Assembly (NCBI RefSeq): GCF_002197845.1 | Contig: NZ_NIDE01000014.1 | Coordinates: 868,001-932,000 of the forward strand | Direction of reading: 5' to 3' | DNA: 64,000 bases | Source: Fimbriiglobus ruber | GTDB lineage: Bacteria; Planctomycetota; Planctomycetia; Gemmatales; Gemmataceae | Part shown: positions 53,375 through 61,241 of the stretch, piece by piece | Position numbering within the stretch: the first letter of the stretch is position 1 | How the letters are laid out: the number at the start of each line of letters is the position of its first letter | Made by a program: the position numbers and the translations under genes | The notes under the pieces: generated by a model | The model's database searches: none | Seen by the model: only the letters and a program-made list of their open reading frames with translations | Told to the model about the DNA's origin: nothing

Positions 53375-55078
53375 TAGGCTGATCGGAAGTCAGGCTGGCC
53401 GTGGTTTCGGGTTCATCCCGGATCTGGTACGGTTTTTCCCGGGGCCGAGTCGGTCCCGAGGAACTTCCGCCGTAGCCACTGGACCGTCGACCCGAACATC
53501 TGTTTCGCCCACGTCTGAACGACCTTCTCGGGAACCCGCTCGAGGTCGCCCTGGATCTGCTCCGGGGTAGTCGTCCCGATCATGGCCCCCAACCCCACGC
53601 TCAACCCCGTCAACCCACTGGCCGATTGGTCCCCGGACAAGCGCTTGAGAACCCCGAACGCGGATTCCACGATCTCCGTACTCCCGACCAGCCGTTCGCC
53701 CGGGTGGGCCGCCCGGGTCTCCCGACCGACGTACGCCCGCAACCGGTTCCGCAAGCGTTCCGTGGTCGGATGGTCGCGGGTCGCCAACGGTTCCCACGCC
53801 TCGGCGACCAGGGCCGGGGTCCGGGCGCCGAACCCCTCGACCCGGACCACCCGGACGGTCGCCTGGGCCAGCGCGTGTTGGTCGGCCCAGACCGGCAGCG
53901 CCGCCGCGTACCCGGCCACCCACCCGTAGTGCGCCACCACGTCCGCATCCGGTTCCGCGGCCTGCAACTTCCGCAGAACGAACGGGCCGAACCGGACGAA
54001 CGCGGCCACACTCAGGTACCGTCCCCGAGCCCGCAACGTTGGGGCCATCAGGTGCGCCGACCGGGTCTGGCGAATCGCCGCCGCGGTGGCCGCCATCTGG
54101 CGGGTGAACGCCGCCCACTGGGGATCGCCCTCCCAGTAGTGCTTGAGCAGGTTAGCCGCGACGTGGGTCACGTCCGCCACCCCGACGGTGTCCGGATACC
54201 GGACCCGGAAGTCCTGAATGCCGGCCCGCCATTCGGTCGCCCCGTCGGACACGATCTGCCGCGGCGGCCCGGTCCGGGCGACCGCGTCGGCCAGCGCGGT
54301 GGCGACCTGCGCGCGGTTCGTGGTGGCCATCGGAACCAGGGCCAGGAGATGCACATCAGCCAACGGGAGGGGGCGGACCCCGAACGGCACCTGATCGAGT
54401 GGGATGCCAAAGATGGCGAACAATTTCTGGTGACCGATCTGGAGGGTGTGGTCGATCAGCCACGCCCACGAGTGGTCGTGGGCCAGGGGGCGCGTGAGGT
54501 GGGCGTACCCGAGTCGGACGACCCACGACCGGACGGTGGTCGGGCACGGCGTCCGGTCGGTGTCCAGGGCGGTCGGCCCGGCGGCGGCCACGACGGCCAG
54601 CGCGGCGGCCGTTCCGCGGAACGACAACCCGGCCTGCCGGACGAGGGCGACGGCGAGACCGATGACGGCGACGGGGTATTGGCCGCCGCGGGGGGACAAA
54701 TCTTTTTGGGGGGCGCGACATCGCCCGCGTCGGCCCCATCCGGGCGATACCGGGCGACTTCCTGTTCGAGGTGGTCGACCCGTTGTTGCAGGTGGTCGAC
54801 CCGCTGTTGCAGGTCCTCGGCCCGCTGACGATGACGTTGGCGGGACGCGACGAGATCCCGGACGCGGATGGTCAAGGCTTTCTGTTCGGCTTTGCGGGCG
54901 GCCGCTTTCGCTTTCCAGGCGTCCCGCGAGCGGACCAGTTTGGGGATCAGAATCCGGGGCGGGGTGTGGAATGCCGTTGCGGTTGCCATGCGAGCCTCGT
55001 GCCCGACAAGCGGGAAACAGTTCCCGGAAGTAGAATCGCGCGAATAATCCGCGACAAGCCCAACTTCCGATCAGCCTA
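53375..55078 (-). mobile_element. Complete insertion sequence (1704 bp) with 16-bp inverted repeats and 9-bp duplication
   Basis: Perfect terminal inverted repeats TAGGCTGATCGGAAGT (53375-53390) and ACTTCCGATCAGCCTA (55063-55078). The target duplication GAGTAAGAG is at 53366-53374 and 55079-55087. One transposase read through a frameshift. The family is common in Gemmata-type genomes; I do not place it in a named IS group. Confidence 0.9.
53413..54989 (-). CDS. Transposase expressed through a probable -1 frameshift
   Basis: The first frame begins ATG 54989 and encodes a basic coiled-coil N-terminus (LVASRQRHRQRAEDLQQRVD) to the A-run at 54701-54713. There CCC AAA AAG allows a -1 slip; the other frame continues SPRGGQYPVAVIGLAVALVR then RQAGLSFRG and encodes the catalytic part (LTRPLAHDHSWAWLIDHTLQ, PRQIVSDGATEWRAGIQDFR, ADVTHVAANLLKHYW, ESAFGVLKRLSG) to the stop at 53413. 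Together about 525 aa. The fused order matches the unbroken transposases of this family as I know them. Intact ends and duplication suggest the shift is programmed rather than a lesion. Confidence 0.75.
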
Positions 55079-55186: not shown

Positions 55187-55489
55187 ATGCCCCCTCACGT
55201 CATCCGCCTCCGCGGCTTCTGGGAAACGACGACCAGCGACGGCCGTACCCGCCACCTGCGCCGGTTTGGCCGCCCACGCACGCTCGACGCACACGAGACG
55301 GTGTGGGTGGTGTGTACTGGGGTGCCCACTGCGGCGACGGTGCTGGTCAACGGCGGGGTGGTCGGCACCGCGACCCCGGGCGAAGCCTTCGCGTTCAAAG
55401 TCACCCACGAACTCCAGCCGCGCAACGAACTGGTGATCGAGGCGGCTACGGACGGTCCCATCGGGGATGTGACGCTGGAGATTCGATAA
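55187..55489 (+). CDS. Small beta-rich protein, source of a 229-bp duplication
   Basis: 100 aa from ATG 55187. It contains VIRLRGFWETTTSDGRTRHL and TLDAHETVWVVCTGVP, then AATVLVNGGVVGTATPGEAF and a final LQPRNELVIEAATDG. It looks like a small immunoglobulin-like or galactose-binding-like beta sandwich. Not recognised. Its last 229 bases recur at 59506-59734 without indels. An inverted copy of the minisatellite that follows the TPR gene precedes the start. Confidence 0.6.
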   Translation: MPPHVIRLRGFWETTTSDGRTRHLRRFGRPRTLDAHETVWVVCTGVPTAATVLVNGGVVGTATPGEAFAFKVTHELQPRNELVIEAATDGPIGDVTLEIR

Positions 55490-55633
55490 TTCCCGCTCCG
55501 ACGGCGAGACTAGGAAGGGAAGACCGATACAGCAGGTATCGAGCCGAGCCAATAGCCGCTCTGTGATCGGCCGACAATTACTGATATAAGCCAAGCGACA
55601 ATTTACGCGGAGATGGTAGACAGAAATACAAAA

Positions 55634-55874: not shown

Positions 55875-57777
55875 GTAACTTCTCAATAACCCCGCGGGCG
55901 TCGGCATCGCGCGCGGGTGCCCCGCCGAACAGGAAGTTCGGTGGCGTCGAGAGCTTGAATAGAAGTCTATATCGTTGCGGAACCGGCCGCTCTCTGGCGG
56001 ACCAACTCCGATAAAGGAAGTAACTCTCCCGCCTTCAGGATTCGATCCTGAAGGTAGGACGTAAAGCGAACTCCCAGCTTCTTGCACGTCGACTTCAAAC
56101 TCAAAAACGTATCCCGGCAACGCTTGCCCAACTCGCCACGCGTGCCGGCACTGATCTTCCGCTTCGTCGCCCAGTCCCGAAAATCACGCTCGGCCGTGTT
56201 GGTGTGCAGCGGCAGGTCCGGACGATCCAGAACCCGTAACAAGTCCGCTTTCTTGCCCGCCATACGCTGCAACGCCGCGTTCAACTCCGGCCAGATGGTC
56301 GTGCGGCCGACGATGGCATCGAAACGCGCTCGCAGCAACTCGGCCTGGCTCGGCGTCGGCGCCAAACGATACGCCTTCAAGTCGGCGTACAGTTGCCAGA
56401 CCGCCGTCAACACCTCTTCCATCGCTTGACATTGCTCACGGCCACACGGCGTCAACTTGGCCAGATTGCGTTCCTGGTGAATCCAGCACAAGCCATGAAC
56501 GAACAGGGCATAAATCGCCGAGCCATCGCTGACGAGGCCCAAGTTCGGCGATAGGCCGTGAGCAATCGCGCTGCCCAGCAACGCCGCCTCCGTCATCGTT
56601 TGACGATGCTTCGCGTTGTCGATTCCCAGGCCATCCAAATGCTGATTCCAGGCCGACACATCCGCGAACGTCCGTGTCACGAACGGACGCTCCCCCACGT
56701 CGCCGGTCGACACCTCGGCTTGCAACAACGGCCAGATTTTGGCAGGCAACCCCTGTCGCGTCAGGTAGGCCCAGGCATGCTCGTTCAGCACATAATCGAT
56801 CCGACCGCAACGCAGCACATCCAGGAATTTGCTCCGCTCTTTCGTGTCGCTGCTGTGGAAGGACGTGAAGAATTCATTGCAAATGCACAGACACGAACCG
56901 TAACGTCCCTGGTGGGGAGCCCCCGAATCGTCCACGTTCAGGCAGGTGAAAACCTGCAAGGCCGTCGGCAACAAGGCGTCCTTCTCTGCGTGAAACGCCG
57001 CGTGATTCTCGGTCAACATGTTGTTGACTTGGCCCGCGGAAATGTCGACGCCGTAATCCCGCAATTCTTCGAGAAGGCGACTCTGGGGAACGTGGGCCGC
57101 GTAATGCTGTTGCAACACGAAACCAAGCAATCCGGGACCGAAATGCCCGCGAATTCCCGCCGGCAGTTCGCCACGAATCCACTCCCCCGTCGGCGCCTGC
57201 CAGGTTTCCAACCAATACCGCGTGTTGTGTGTTTTGATCACCAGATCCTGCACGACGAACGCATCGCGACGCAACAACTTCGCGTCGGGCGGCAACGGTT
57301 TCGGCGTGACCGGAACCTCGGCGTGAATCGGCAGATCGTGGGTCTTCGAACGCTTCTGCGAACCGGGCCTCTTGCCATCGGGCAATGGAGGAGTGAAGGG
57401 CTTGCTTAACTTGCTGGGCTTGCTGTTGGACGCGGGTTTCTTCGGACCTCCCTTGAGTTGTGTGATCTCTCCCGTGAGTTGCGTAAGTTCGGTTTCGAGA
57501 TCCGCAATGCGTTGGGAGTACTCTTCGATCACCTTCAGCAAGAGAAGCACGAGAGGGGTTCTGTCGTCGTCGCGGATGCCCGCGATGACTTCTGGCCATG
57601 ACGCCGCCGCGGGTGTTGCCACCTCCCGGCCGGAGTCGTTGCCGTCAGTACTCGCGGAAAGGTTCATGCGGCCAACATAAGAAACCCCCCTTCGATCAGC
57701 TGCGCCACGGACCCGGAATTTCTAAACGCAAGCACCCCCTGCTCGGCGACCGTCGCAGGAAGTTATTGAGAAGTTAC
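55875..57777 (-). mobile_element. Complete IS66-type element (1903 bp)
   Basis: Perfect inverted ends GTAACTTCTCAATAAC (55875-55890) and GTTATTGAGAAGTTAC (57762-57777); target duplication CTTCTTTT (8 bp) at 55867-55874 and 57778-57785. Carries only the large transposase; the small accessory genes of classical IS66 are absent, as in the ISBst12-like branch. Confidence 0.92.
55967..57667 (-). CDS. IS66-family transposase (TnpC type)
   Basis: 566 aa, complete. The N-terminal leucine-rich coiled coil (VIEEYSQRIADLETELTQLT) and Lys/Pro/Ser region (KKPASNSKPSKLSKPF) are typical, as are the central GPGLLGFVLQQHYAAHVPQ, VDDSGAPHQG (Asp) and WIHQERNLAKL, and the C-terminal LPLHTNTAERDFRDWATKRK with NTAERDFR (Glu). 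Frame intact. It drives transposition of the flanking element. Confidence 0.93.
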   Translation of the reverse strand: MNLSASTDGNDSGREVATPAAASWPEVIAGIRDDDRTPLVLLLLKVIEEYSQRIADLETELTQLTGEITQLKGGPKKPASNSKPSKLSKPFTPPLPDGKRPGSQKRSKTHDLPIHAEVPVTPKPLPPDAKLLRRDAFVVQDLVIKTHNTRYWLETWQAPTGEWIRGELPAGIRGHFGPGLLGFVLQQHYAAHVPQSRLLEELRDYGVDISAGQVNNMLTENHAAFHAEKDALLPTALQVFTCLNVDDSGAPHQGRYGSCLCICNEFFTSFHSSDTKERSKFLDVLRCGRIDYVLNEHAWAYLTRQGLPAKIWPLLQAEVSTGDVGERPFVTRTFADVSAWNQHLDGLGIDNAKHRQTMTEAALLGSAIAHGLSPNLGLVSDGSAIYALFVHGLCWIHQERNLAKLTPCGREQCQAMEEVLTAVWQLYADLKAYRLAPTPSQAELLRARFDAIVGRTTIWPELNAALQRMAGKKADLLRVLDRPDLPLHTNTAERDFRDWATKRKISAGTRGELGKRCRDTFLSLKSTCKKLGVRFTSYLQDRILKAGELLPLSELVRQRAAGSATI

Positions 57778-59250: not shown

Positions 59251-59739
59251 ATGGAACGTGCGCTGCGAGAGTCCCCAGTCGTGGTTGACCTTGGGGAAGA
59301 CTTCATGCGCGGGACCGGGCCGGTGAAAATCGGGAAAGACGTTGTTTATGCTTATTTCACGGCGACGGAACAGACGGCGCGGGTGCGAATGTCGGCCGAC
59401 GAGGGGGATCGCTTGGATCTTTTCCCCGGCCGCCAAGTGCGCGTCGCTTGGGATGGGCGGGAATTCGTAAGCGCACTTCTAACGGCAGTCGTTCCCGCGC
59501 CGCCACCGGTTCGGCCGCCCGCGCACGCTCGACGCGCACGAGACGGTCTGGGCGGTGTGTACCGGGGTGCCCACTGCGGCGACGGTGCTGGTCAACGGCG
59601 GGGTGGTCGGCACCGCGACCCCGGGCGAAGTCTTCGCGTTCAAAGTCACCCACGAACTCCAACCGCGCAACGAACTGGTGATCGAGGCGGCTACGGCCGA
59701 GTCCGTCGGGAATGTGACGCTGGAGATTCGATAATTTAG
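59251..59739 (+). CDS. Unknown protein with a chimeric C-terminus
   Basis: 162 aa from ATG 59251. The first ~90 residues read as normal coding sequence (SPVVVDLGEDFMRGTGPVKI, DVVYAYFTATEQTARVRMSA, RQVRVAWDGREFVSALLTAV). From 59506 the DNA is a copy of 55261-55489 read in the wrong frame, giving an Arg/Gly-rich tail. The original C-terminus was therefore lost or extended by recombination. Function not recognised. Confidence 0.5.
   Translation: MERALRESPVVVDLGEDFMRGTGPVKIGKDVVYAYFTATEQTARVRMSADEGDRLDLFPGRQVRVAWDGREFVSALLTAVVPAPPPVRPPAHARRARDGLGGVYRGAHCGDGAGQRRGGRHRDPGRSLRVQSHPRTPTAQRTGDRGGYGRVRRECDAGDSII
59506..59734 (+). pseudogene. Duplicated 3' segment of the 55187 gene
   Basis: 229 bases matching 55261-55489 with a handful of substitutions and no indel, ending at the same stop (LEIR). 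It lacks a start codon in the original frame. Confidence 0.8.
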
Positions 59740-59906
59740 CAGTGACTTCTCACTCCACACGACAGATCGTGTGTGTGGTGCCGCCGACCCCGTATTGCAG
59801 CGCGAACATCCGGCCGCCCGCGCGTGTCTCCTCCTACTACTACATTACACTGACGACCACCGTGGCCGCGCCAACGGCCGTTATCTCGAATCGTGCAGGT
59901 ACTCCG

Positions 59907-60644
59907 ATGCCCAAACTCAACCAGATCAACGCCATCGTTTCCGGGCGAAAAGGGGACTCGGAAAAGGCGATCACCGAACTTTACAAGCTCGTCCAAAAGG
60001 ACCAACTCTTCGCGGGTCGGGAGCGGACGTATCGCCCGCTCGACGAGGTGACGGGGCAGAAGCTCCCGCCCGAATCCCAGCGCGTCCAGCAACGGGCCGA
60101 CGACCTGGTTCGACAGGCCCGGGAAAAGTGGGCGGACCTGTGGAACCTCGTCCTCACCCAGGACGTCGGGAACCAGCAGGCGAAGGCCGACGTGGTCGTC
60201 GACGGGCAGCCGATCCTCGCAAACGTCCCGATCACATTCCTACTTTTCCTGGACAAGCAGGTGAACGACCTCGAAACGTTCGTCTCGAAACTCCCGACGC
60301 CGGACCCGGCCGAGGAGTGGACCCACGACCCGAACACCGGCCTCCTCCGCAGCCGGGCGACGGAATCGGTCCGCACGTCCAAGGAGCCGACGGTCATCGT
60401 CAAGTACGAGGCGACCAAGGACCACCCGGCCCAGACCGAGCTGTTTACCAAGGACGTGCCGGTCGGGACGTGGACGCAGATCCTGTACAGCGGGTGCATC
60501 CCGGCGGACCGCAAGAACGCGATCCTCGCCCGCGTGCGCAAGCTCCGCGACGCGATCAAGGCCGCCAAGGAGCAGGCGAACCTGCACGAGGTCGAGCGGC
60601 AGAAGGCGGCCGAAGCGGTGTTCGGGTTCGTGTTCGGGGCGTGA
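59907..60644 (+). CDS. Unknown conserved cytosolic protein upstream of the tRNA-like RNAs
   Basis: 245 aa from ATG 59907 (MPKLNQINAIVSGRKG). It contains TYRPLDEVTGQKLPPESQ, WNLVLTQDVGNQQAKADVVV, PILANVPITFLLFLDKQVND and DPAEEWTHDPNTGLLRSRAT. I recognise this as a conserved family also found in actinobacteria (I believe DUF7873) but know no function. No enzyme motif, signal or membrane helix. It is the gene directly before the two tRNA-like RNA units, same strand. Confidence 0.75.
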   Translation: MPKLNQINAIVSGRKGDSEKAITELYKLVQKDQLFAGRERTYRPLDEVTGQKLPPESQRVQQRADDLVRQAREKWADLWNLVLTQDVGNQQAKADVVVDGQPILANVPITFLLFLDKQVNDLETFVSKLPTPDPAEEWTHDPNTGLLRSRATESVRTSKEPTVIVKYEATKDHPAQTELFTKDVPVGTWTQILYSGCIPADRKNAILARVRKLRDAIKAAKEQANLHEVERQKAAEAVFGFVFGA

Positions 60645-60693: not shown

Positions 60694-60842
60694 GGTCGTC
60701 GATTTTGTGTCAAGTTTTGGTTTGCAAGAATCGGGGAACGCACATCTCGCCACTCGCTCCGAACAACTTCGGGCGCACATTTGCCATTTCCCCGGTTTCG
60801 CTTGAACCTTTCGCCCGCCCGCGGCATCATGTCTCTTGCACA

Positions 60843-60988
60843 GGCGTGCAGACTCAGGCTCAGGCTCATAGTCAACCGCCACCGGCGCACAGTGTGGGTT
60901 CGATTCCCACCCCCCCTATTCCCAACCACAGGGGGGTAGCCCAACGGGAGAGGCACGTCGGGGCACCCCAGGCTCAGACTGACACGCC
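60843..60988 (+). ncRNA. tRNA-like RNA unit 1 in permuted order (Y RNA-like)
   Basis: All tRNA helices pair in the order 3'-half, loop, 5'-half. T arm GTGGG-TTCGATT-CCCAC (60894-60910). Acceptor 3' strand CCCCCCT (60911-60917), base A, an 11-base link, and acceptor 5' strand AGGGGGG (60930-60936): 7 of 7 pairs. D arm GCC-CAACGGGAGA-GGC (60939-60954). Anticodon-type stem CGTCG (60956-60960) with CGGCG (60883-60887): 5 of 5 with one G-U. The flanks pair GGCGTG (60843-60848) with CACGCC (60983-60988). A joined stem instead of an anticodon loop is what bacterial Y RNAs have; a permuted tRNA gene is the alternative. Confidence 0.6.
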
Positions 60989-61000
60989 AAAACTGAAACC

Positions 61001-61175
61001 CGTGCCGAGGTGTCCAATCGACTGACCGGCCATTCACCAAAAAATACTGGTGCAAATCCAGTCCCCTCCGCTCTCGCGCCCGATAACCTCGGGGGGGGTC
61101 GCCTAACAGTAAGGCGTTTGGTCCTAGACTCAAGGCCGGCGACCGGAAACCGTGGACATTCCCTGAGACGGCACG
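61001..61175 (+). ncRNA. tRNA-like RNA unit 2 in permuted order (Y RNA-like)
   Basis: T arm ACTGG-TGCAAAT-CCAGT (61046-61062). Acceptor CCCCTCC (61063-61069), about 21-base link, GGGGGGG (61092-61098): 7 of 7 with one G-U. D arm GCC-TAACAGTAA-GGC (61101-61115). Anticodon-type stem TTTGG (61117-61121) with CCAAA (61037-61041): 5 of 5. The flanks form a long broken stem: CCGGCC/GGCCGG (61026-61031, 61134-61139), GTCCA/TGGAC (61012-61016, 61153-61157), CGTGCCG/CGGCACG (61001-61007, 61169-61175). T and D loops lack some tRNA consensus bases. The long closing stem favours a Y RNA (Ro60-binding stem). Confidence 0.6.
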
Positions 61176-61201
61176 CCAGACCCGTAAGGGTTATGGAACC
61201 A

Positions 61202-61241
61202 GTCCCGGTGAGCCGGCGAAAGCTCACCGGGACGCTTTTTT
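61202..61241 (+). terminator. Strong intrinsic terminator of the tRNA-like RNA locus
   Basis: 12-bp perfect stem GTCCCGGTGAGC/GCTCACCGGGAC, 8-base loop, then GCTTTTTT. It shows that the tRNA-like units are transcribed from the plus strand. Confidence 0.88.

What the first reader, a model, noticed from the sequence alone, without database searches (positions are those of the whole stretch)
60843..61241. Two tandem RNAs with complete permuted tRNA-like cloverleaves: probable Y RNAs, or permuted tRNA genes
Seen directly: in both units the T arm and 3' acceptor strand come before the 5' acceptor strand and D arm, and every tRNA helix pairs (acceptor 7/7, D 3/3, T 5/5, anticodon-type stem 5/5, in each unit). 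The pairing is unit-specific: unit 1's CGTCG does not pair with unit 2's CCAAA. The flanks of each unit also pair, and the locus ends in an intrinsic terminator. Known: bacterial Y RNAs contain a domain resembling tRNA and a stem formed by the RNA ends that binds Ro60; permuted tRNA genes are known from some algae and archaea. Inference: tandem Y RNAs without a Ro60 gene in the window, or a bacterial case of permuted tRNAs.
Basis: partly seen in the sequence, partly recalled or inferred. Interest (0 to 1): 0.9.

Follow-up and report, generated by a model that had tools for sequence, protein, structure and literature searches.

The report
Twin permuted-tRNA RNA paired with DUF7873
This stretch encodes an unannotated RNA of about 400 nucleotides carrying two inside-out copies of the tRNA shape, and it travels across bacterial phyla and phages with one protein of unknown function (DUF7873), which points to an undescribed RNA-protein system that imitates tRNA.

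Summary
Window 60838-61240 looks like a discrete RNA with its own promoter and terminator. It holds two tandem modules in which the T arm and 3' acceptor strand precede the 5' acceptor strand and D arm. Across 72-73 homologues the helices covary strongly (U1 98.1% of cells paired; U2 93.4%, 921 double-change cells against 278 shuffled). tRNA elbow residues are near invariant, but U33 is not conserved, so these are tRNA mimics rather than permuted tRNA genes. The constant partner is not Ro60. It is DUF7873 (PF25283), encoded directly upstream at 59907-60644. In 95 Gemmataceae genomes the same 22 hold both full-length RNA and DUF7873, and the other 73 hold neither, although RNA and gene are unlinked in 11 of the 22. 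In a scan of named genomes 73 of 80 DUF7873 loci, and 77 of 80 viral ones, have a match to the RNA just downstream. No Ro60-type protein was found in 8 of the 22 RNA-positive genomes. No Rfam 15 family reaches its cut-off here, and no held paper names DUF7873. Best reading: a Ro60-independent ribonucleoprotein built on a Y-RNA-type tRNA-mimic module. Binding and function are inferred.

The parts
59907..60644 (+). DUF7873 (PF25283) protein gene, 245 aa; partner of the RNA
   Evidence: Pfam 316.7 bits, cut-off 27; same 22 of 95 genomes as the full-length RNA
60802..60830 (+). promoter-like: TTGAAC (60802-60807), 17-nt spacer, CATCAT (60825-60830)
   Evidence: read; TTGAAC kept in 16 of 20 homologues. 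The generic sigma-70 scan found no promoter here
60838..61240 (+). twin permuted-tRNA RNA (transcript ends inferred from promoter and terminator)
60835..60992 (+). Unit 1 (model R1): closing helix GGCGTG/CACGCC 60843-60848/60983-60988 around a permuted tRNA-like module
   Evidence: 152 bits; covariation on 72 homologues
60894..60910 (+). Unit 1 T arm, loop TTCGATT
   Evidence: T54, C56, A58 in 72 of 72; stem 100% paired
60911..60936 (+). Unit 1 acceptor: 3' strand 60911-60917, 12-nt cap 60918-60929, 5' strand 60930-60936
   Evidence: 99.6% paired, 7 of 7 pairs with double changes; cap 4-101 nt in 72 homologues
60937..60954 (+). Unit 1 positions 8-9 and D arm
   Evidence: U8 72/72, A14 71/72, GG in D loop 68/72
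60990..61175 (+). Unit 2 (model R2): helices GTGCCG/CGGCAC 61002-61007/61169-61174 and GTGTCCA/TGGACAT 61010-61016/61153-61159 around a second permuted tRNA-like module
   Evidence: 174 bits; 43 of 44 pairs with double changes on 73 rows
61046..61062 (+). Unit 2 T arm
   Evidence: 98.6% paired
61063..61098 (+). Unit 2 acceptor: 3' strand 61063-61069, 22-nt cap, 5' strand 61092-61098
   Evidence: all 7 pairs with double changes
61099..61115 (+). Unit 2 position 8 and D arm
   Evidence: 98.6% paired; U8 72/72
61202..61240 (+). intrinsic terminator
   Evidence: 12-bp stem plus T run; similar hairpins seen by eye in the alignment of 20 homologues

Best explanation
The RNA and DUF7873 form one two-gene system. 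SHOWN by comparison: the RNA is a conserved unit with two permuted tRNA-like modules, each keeping the T loop/D loop elbow and a 7-bp acceptor, mounted on covarying stems where a tRNA would have its anticodon loop; and it occurs together with DUF7873 with few exceptions. INFERRED: DUF7873 binds the RNA to make a ribonucleoprotein, as Ro60 does with YrlA but without Ro60. The two modules present a tRNA fold with no anticodon loop and, while the acceptor cap is uncut, no open 3' end, so enzymes that read the tRNA fold (processing, modification, repair or decay) can dock on it without its being translated. The particle thus tethers or decoys such enzymes for tRNA upkeep or protection. Its frequent place among phage tRNA genes fits that job.
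For: Co-occurrence 22/22 and 0/73 (Fisher 5e-22), concordant also within genera where only some members have it (g6, g20, g24, g37), and with RNA and gene unlinked in 11 of 22. RNA beside DUF7873 in 12 of 12 positive genomes of a 294-genome phylum sample (window included). Match downstream in 73 of 80 loci of a named-genome scan (of the other 7, five are Gemmataceae contigs whose genomes hold the RNA elsewhere, two are L214 and L222) and in 77 of 80 viral loci at E<=0.001, 67 of 80 at 45 bits or more. Covariation. Elbow residues kept, U33 not. No other neighbour family in more than 6 of 68 loci. Seven of 8 annotated phages have 2 or more tRNA genes within 6 kb; 22 of 40 viral loci given (of 80) have an ARAGORN call within 2.5 kb, bacterial 4 of 60 within 3 kb (a few viral calls lie on or beside the RNA). 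A poly(A)/CCA-polymerase-family gene follows the RNA in 8 of 20 Gemmataceae loci (3 of the 8 tested by Pfam).
Against: No binding, expression or phenotype data. DUF7873 has no recognisable RNA-binding fold: no Foldseek hit at E<=0.001 in PDB or viral models, best second-look row Z 9.0 at rmsd 8.3, and pI 7.8. Five of 8 annotated phages give only weak RNA matches, 24-33 bits; 10 viral loci are under 45 bits and one of these (L290) overlaps an ARAGORN tRNA call; L284, L285, L214 and L222 have none. Ro60-type proteins are also enriched in RNA-positive genomes. Genomes of one family share ancestry, so 22/22 overstates independent events.
Confidence: 0.62

Rival explanations
1. Tandem Y RNAs that serve Ro60 in trans.
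For: Same permuted tRNA module as YrlA (alignment). Other tandem permuted units sit directly upstream of Ro60-type genes in this phylum (L122, L123, L130, L124, L127, L128, L138). Ro60-type proteins are commoner in RNA-positive genomes: TROVE 9/22 against 6/73, TROVE or the divergent family 14/22 against 15/73.
Against: 8 of 22 RNA-positive genomes (G012, 13, 16, 20, 24, 44, 45, 54) show neither, and 15 of 73 RNA-negative genomes have one. A Ro60-type match lies near DUF7873 in only 4 of 168 loci (L166, L244, L314, L342).
Confidence: 0.1
2. Permuted tRNA genes spliced into functional tRNAs.
For: Correct permuted order, 7-5-4 bp arms and a 5-bp anticodon-type stem; variable acceptor-cap length, as for an excised spacer; N-C-C-A after the acceptor in 9/72 U1 and 11/73 U2 rows.
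Against: T at position 33 in 25 of 72 of unit 2 and no fixed anticodon. The stem runs on into covarying helices instead of closing a loop.
Confidence: 0.04
3. Two-piece, tmRNA-like RNA: RNase P and 3' processing remove the acceptor caps, leaving nicked tRNA-like ends that can be CCA-tailed or charged.
For: Cap length varies 4-101 nt while the stem is conserved; a poly(A)/CCA-polymerase-family gene follows in 8 of 20 Gemmataceae; C follows the discriminator in 55/72 U1 and 71/73 U2 rows.
Against: The median cap is 8 nt in both units, which leaves little to process. The D stem is complete, unlike tmRNA as I recall it. The genome has its own tmRNA.
Confidence: 0.15
4. Toxin-antitoxin or defence cassette in which the RNA restrains DUF7873.
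For: Compact two-gene cassette, patchy, found in phages and bacteria.
Against: RNA and gene are unlinked in 11 of 22 Gemmataceae; no PADLOC match for 3 proteins; the RNA lies downstream, unlike the type III systems I recall.
Confidence: 0.09

Closest known systems
YrlA-type bacterial Y RNA (RF02553) with Ro60/Rsr
   Same: Permuted tRNA-like module: T arm and 3' acceptor strand, capped acceptor, 5' strand, D arm, carried on a stem (alignment).
   Different: Two modules in one ~400-nt RNA; YrlA score 22 against cut-off 69; constant partner gene is DUF7873, not TROVE.
Permuted (two-piece) tmRNA, RF04321 and RF01851
   Same: T arm and acceptor strands in permuted order (18 and 25 bits).
   Different: Complete D stem, two units, below the cut-offs of 47 and 70; a separate tmRNA exists in the genome.
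Circularly permuted tRNA genes of algae and one archaeon (PMC3978253, passages seen)
   Same: 3' half before 5' half.
   Different: No conserved anticodon loop; the junction runs into long conserved helices.

Membership tests
Y RNA (YrlA type) | permuted tRNA-like module | tested here: met
Y RNA (YrlA type) | scores over the Rfam cut-off | tested here: not met
   22 bits against 69
Y RNA (YrlA type) | encoded with, or dependent on, Ro60/Rsr | tested here: not met
   Ro60-type match near DUF7873 in 4 of 168 loci; 8 of 22 RNA-positive genomes without a detected Ro60-type protein. Dependence itself needs experiment
Y RNA (YrlA type) | binds Ro60 | not testable with these tools
   needs a binding assay
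permuted tRNA gene | 3' half precedes 5' half with full cloverleaf arms | tested here: met
permuted tRNA gene | functional anticodon loop (U33, fixed anticodon) | tested here: not met
   T at position 33 in 25 of 72 of unit 2; unit 1 not tabulated
permuted tRNA gene | bulge-helix-bulge splice site | not tested
   no systematic scan
permuted tmRNA | reaches the family score | tested here: not met
   18 against 47, 25 against 70
permuted tmRNA | is the genome's tmRNA | tested here: not met
   tmRNA at G000:C4:67915-68318, 159 bits
permuted tmRNA | tag-peptide reading frame | not tested
   no dedicated search
twister-sister ribozyme | reaches the family score | tested here: not met
   25.7 against 34, over unit 2
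known function for DUF7873 | family or fold with an assigned role | tested here: inconclusive
   Pfam DUF only; no confident fold match

The most novel reading that the evidence does not exclude
A widespread Ro60-independent ribonucleoprotein, DUF7873 plus a twin tRNA-mimic RNA, encoded by bacteria of several phyla and by many viruses, often within viral tRNA gene clusters, that captures tRNA-handling enzymes; the twin module could engage two such enzymes, or one dimer, at once.
Probability: 0.5. Interest if true: 0.92.

Novelty: new variant of a known kind. Interest (0 to 1): 0.82.

Why it matters
It links a protein family of unknown function to a specific structured RNA by near-perfect co-occurrence, which makes that function testable at once. 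It widens tRNA mimicry in bacteria beyond the Ro60/Y RNA pair; DUF7873 itself has 312 relatives in one genome collection and 430 in one viral collection, of which 80 each were examined. Viral copies near tRNA genes suggest a role in the contest over tRNA between phage and host. Standard annotation misses it: ARAGORN and Rfam call nothing at the window locus, and ARAGORN called no gene over the RNA in 60 bacterial loci.

Tried and rejected
Rejected: (1) a tmRNA, since the genome has its own. (2) A twister-sister ribozyme: weak hit over unit 2, below cut-off. (3) Further copies in this genome: the weak core matches at C17 and C4 lie in ordinary tandem tRNA genes. (4) 'RNA without Ro60' resting on TROVE alone: by TROVE 13 of 22 RNA-positive genomes lack Ro60, but I then found a divergent vWA/Ro60-like family that Pfam TROVE misses and recounted with it, which leaves 8 of 22. 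(5) Function from fold: Foldseek gave nothing at E<=0.001; 3kdq (an uncharacterised protein) was the top second-look row at Z 9.0 with rmsd 8.3, not usable. A missing match does not show a new fold. (6) Conserved neighbours other than DUF7873: the next cluster spans 6 of 68 loci. (7) PHROGs, NCBIfam, PADLOC and PDB sequence searches with DUF7873 gave no family.

Papers: PMC7790460, PMC3978253, PMC12282133, PMC8058203, PMC7824862 and PMC7765460 were seen as passages only; the other papers only in search listings. PMC5062991, PMC4201824, PMC10870794 and PMC6047535 are not held, so the main Y RNA papers were not read and prior description there cannot be excluded.

Full report
WHAT WAS CHECKED. 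The stretch was read base by base. Both units have the T arm and 3' acceptor strand before the 5' acceptor strand and D arm, with a further stem where the anticodon stem of a tRNA would be. ARAGORN and Rfam at curated cut-offs report nothing in the window. At low threshold the first unit resembles permuted and cyanobacterial tmRNA (18 and 25 bits) and YrlA (22 bits), all far under cut-off. The single-sequence fold is only mildly better than shuffles, so comparison had to decide.

HOMOLOGUES. DNA search of 95 Gemmataceae genomes gave matches in 23, the substantial ones at 68-77% identity and most reaching into the promoter; 20 loci were aligned. TTGAAC at the promoter is kept in 16 of 20, and the RNA begins just after it with GCACAGGCGTGCAG in 19 of 20. 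A terminator ends it at 61202-61240. In four of these homologues the cap between the two acceptor strands of unit 1 is 90-101 nt long while the stem stays intact.

STRUCTURE. RNAalifold on 20 sequences recovers both permuted cloverleaves without being given them. Models R1 (unit 1) and R2 (unit 2) were built from these 20. I then gave cmsearch 72 and 73 chosen loci (planctomycetes, actinomycetes, Chloroflexota, Proteobacteria, Armatimonadota by record title, and phages), picked because they had matched before. U1 pairs in 98.1% of cells with 226 double-change cells (65 shuffled), U2 in 93.4% with 921 (278 shuffled); slid controls fall to 38-57%. These alignments were fitted to the models, which favours them; the shuffles and the independent folds of 63 concatenated rows, in which the same arms appear, answer part of that. 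One of the 73 U2 rows is a partial unit 1 match (L014:1755); it was dropped but not. Unit 2's acceptor is 7 bp. Elbow residues in U1: U8 72/72, A14 71/72, GG in the D loop 68/72, T54, C56 and A58 72/72; in U2 U8 72/72, A14 68/72, GG 62/72. At position 33 of U2 the letters are T 25, G 22, A 16, C 9. The anticodon-type stem is above swapped-partner controls in both units.

PARTNER. The gene directly upstream, 59907-60644, is DUF7873 (PF25283, 316.7 bits). The same 95 genomes hold DUF7873 in 22, exactly the 22 with a full-length (1-184) R2 match; 16 further genomes had only partial core R2 matches at E<=0.01, and one search used Infernal's stricter filters. In 11 the gene and RNA are adjacent; in 11 they are on different contigs or from about 12 kb to 2 Mb apart. 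In G012 the DUF7873 frame has one stop and in G011 it is split, while the RNA matches at full length. In a 294-genome sample of the phylum DUF7873 is in 12, and all 12 have an RNA match beside it (weakest G201, partial, 37.7 bits; an extra fragment at a contig end, L262, has none). In named genomes 312 relatives were found and 80 kept. A match lies downstream in 73: 65 of 67 at 45 bits or more, plus L234 and 7 of 12 Gemmataceae-type loci. DUF7873 is in 73 phage records; of 8 examined, 3 reach 45 bits and 5 give weak matches of 24-33 bits. Of 80 viral contigs 77 have a match at E<=0.001 downstream, 67 at 45 bits or more; L284 and L285 have none and L356 ends at the gene. L290's weak match overlaps an ARAGORN tRNA call. 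Some viral loci are near-duplicates.

RO60. TROVE is in 15 of 95 genomes (9 of 22 RNA-positive, 6 of 73 negative), including this one at G000:C1:508158, not in the window. Other tandem permuted arrays (L124, L127, L128, L138) precede a divergent vWA/Ro60-like protein that Pfam TROVE misses (weak vWA_Ro60 in L128 only); that protein is in 24 of 95. Counting both, 14 of 22 RNA-positive genomes have a Ro60-type protein and 8 have none found (G012, G013, G016, G020, G024, G044, G045, G054; G013 is only 65% complete), against 15 of 73 RNA-negative genomes (p 3e-4). So Ro60 is enriched but is not the constant partner. Near DUF7873 a Ro60-type match occurs in 4 of 168 loci.

PROTEIN. AlphaFold2 on 46 sequences gave pLDDT 89.8 and pTM 0.65; the five models range 64.9-89.8, so the fold is tentative. 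Neither PDB nor viral models gave a usable match. Neighbour clustering over 68 loci found no other conserved gene (next cluster 6 loci). PADLOC: none for 3 proteins.

HOW IT MAY WORK. Shown: conserved RNA, tRNA-like modules, co-occurrence. Inferred: DUF7873 binds the RNA; the modules imitate the tRNA elbow and acceptor but cannot decode, and offer no open 3' end while the cap is uncut; enzymes that read the tRNA fold dock there. The known parallel is YrlA, whose tRNA-like domain has been suggested as a possible competitive inhibitor of an anticodon nuclease (PMC7790460, passages). Evidence on whether the caps are cut is mixed: median 8 nt but up to 101; a poly(A)/CCA-polymerase-family gene follows in 8 of 20 Gemmataceae; NCCA follows the acceptor in 9/72 and 11/73 rows.

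NOVELTY. No Rfam 15 family covers the RNA in the window or in 13 DUF7873 loci tested. No held paper contains 'DUF7873'. Searches on Y RNA, permuted tRNA and tRNA mimics list nothing that describes it by title or abstract, but the main Y RNA papers are not held. I rate it a new variant of a known kind: the module is known from Y RNAs, while the twin architecture, the DUF7873 partner and the distribution are, as far as I could search, undescribed.

Noticed in passing
L124:5748-8198, L127:2372-4780, L128:6922-8900, L138:1305-3408: Tandem permuted tRNA-like units directly upstream of a ~540-aa vWA/Ro60-like protein that Pfam TROVE misses; 24 of 95 genomes hold the protein. Probably a divergent Ro60 with Y RNA arrays.
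   Followed up: partly
L122:4915-5149, L123:5895-6103, L130:4526-4851: Pairs of permuted tRNA-like units directly upstream of TROVE/Ro60 genes, none reaching the Rfam YrlA cut-off.
   Followed up: partly
homologues in alignments A6 and A7, first bases after the acceptor 3' strand: A C follows the discriminator in 55/72 unit 1 and 71/73 unit 2 rows, and the discriminator is A in unit 1 (69/72) but U or G in unit 2 (69/73). Unexplained.
   Followed up: no
L003, L007, L010, L011, L015, L017, L018, L019: A poly(A)/CCA-polymerase-family gene follows the RNA in 8 of 20 Gemmataceae and is there also in 5 genomes where DUF7873 lies elsewhere (3 of the 8 tested by Pfam).
   Followed up: partly
G011:C1:466792-469250 and G012:C194:41504-42190: DUF7873 is split in G011 and carries one stop codon in G012, while the RNA elsewhere in each genome matches at full length.
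   Followed up: no
window 55195-55500 and 59400-59750: ORF translations share the same peptide stretches, suggesting a duplicated segment.
   Followed up: no
window 53413-54699 and 55967-57667, minus strand: Two long ORFs that look like transposases by eye (recalled, not tested).
   Followed up: no
G000:C1:509550-509617: Weak YrlA match (18 bits) just upstream of this genome's own TROVE gene, a possible Y RNA.
   Followed up: no
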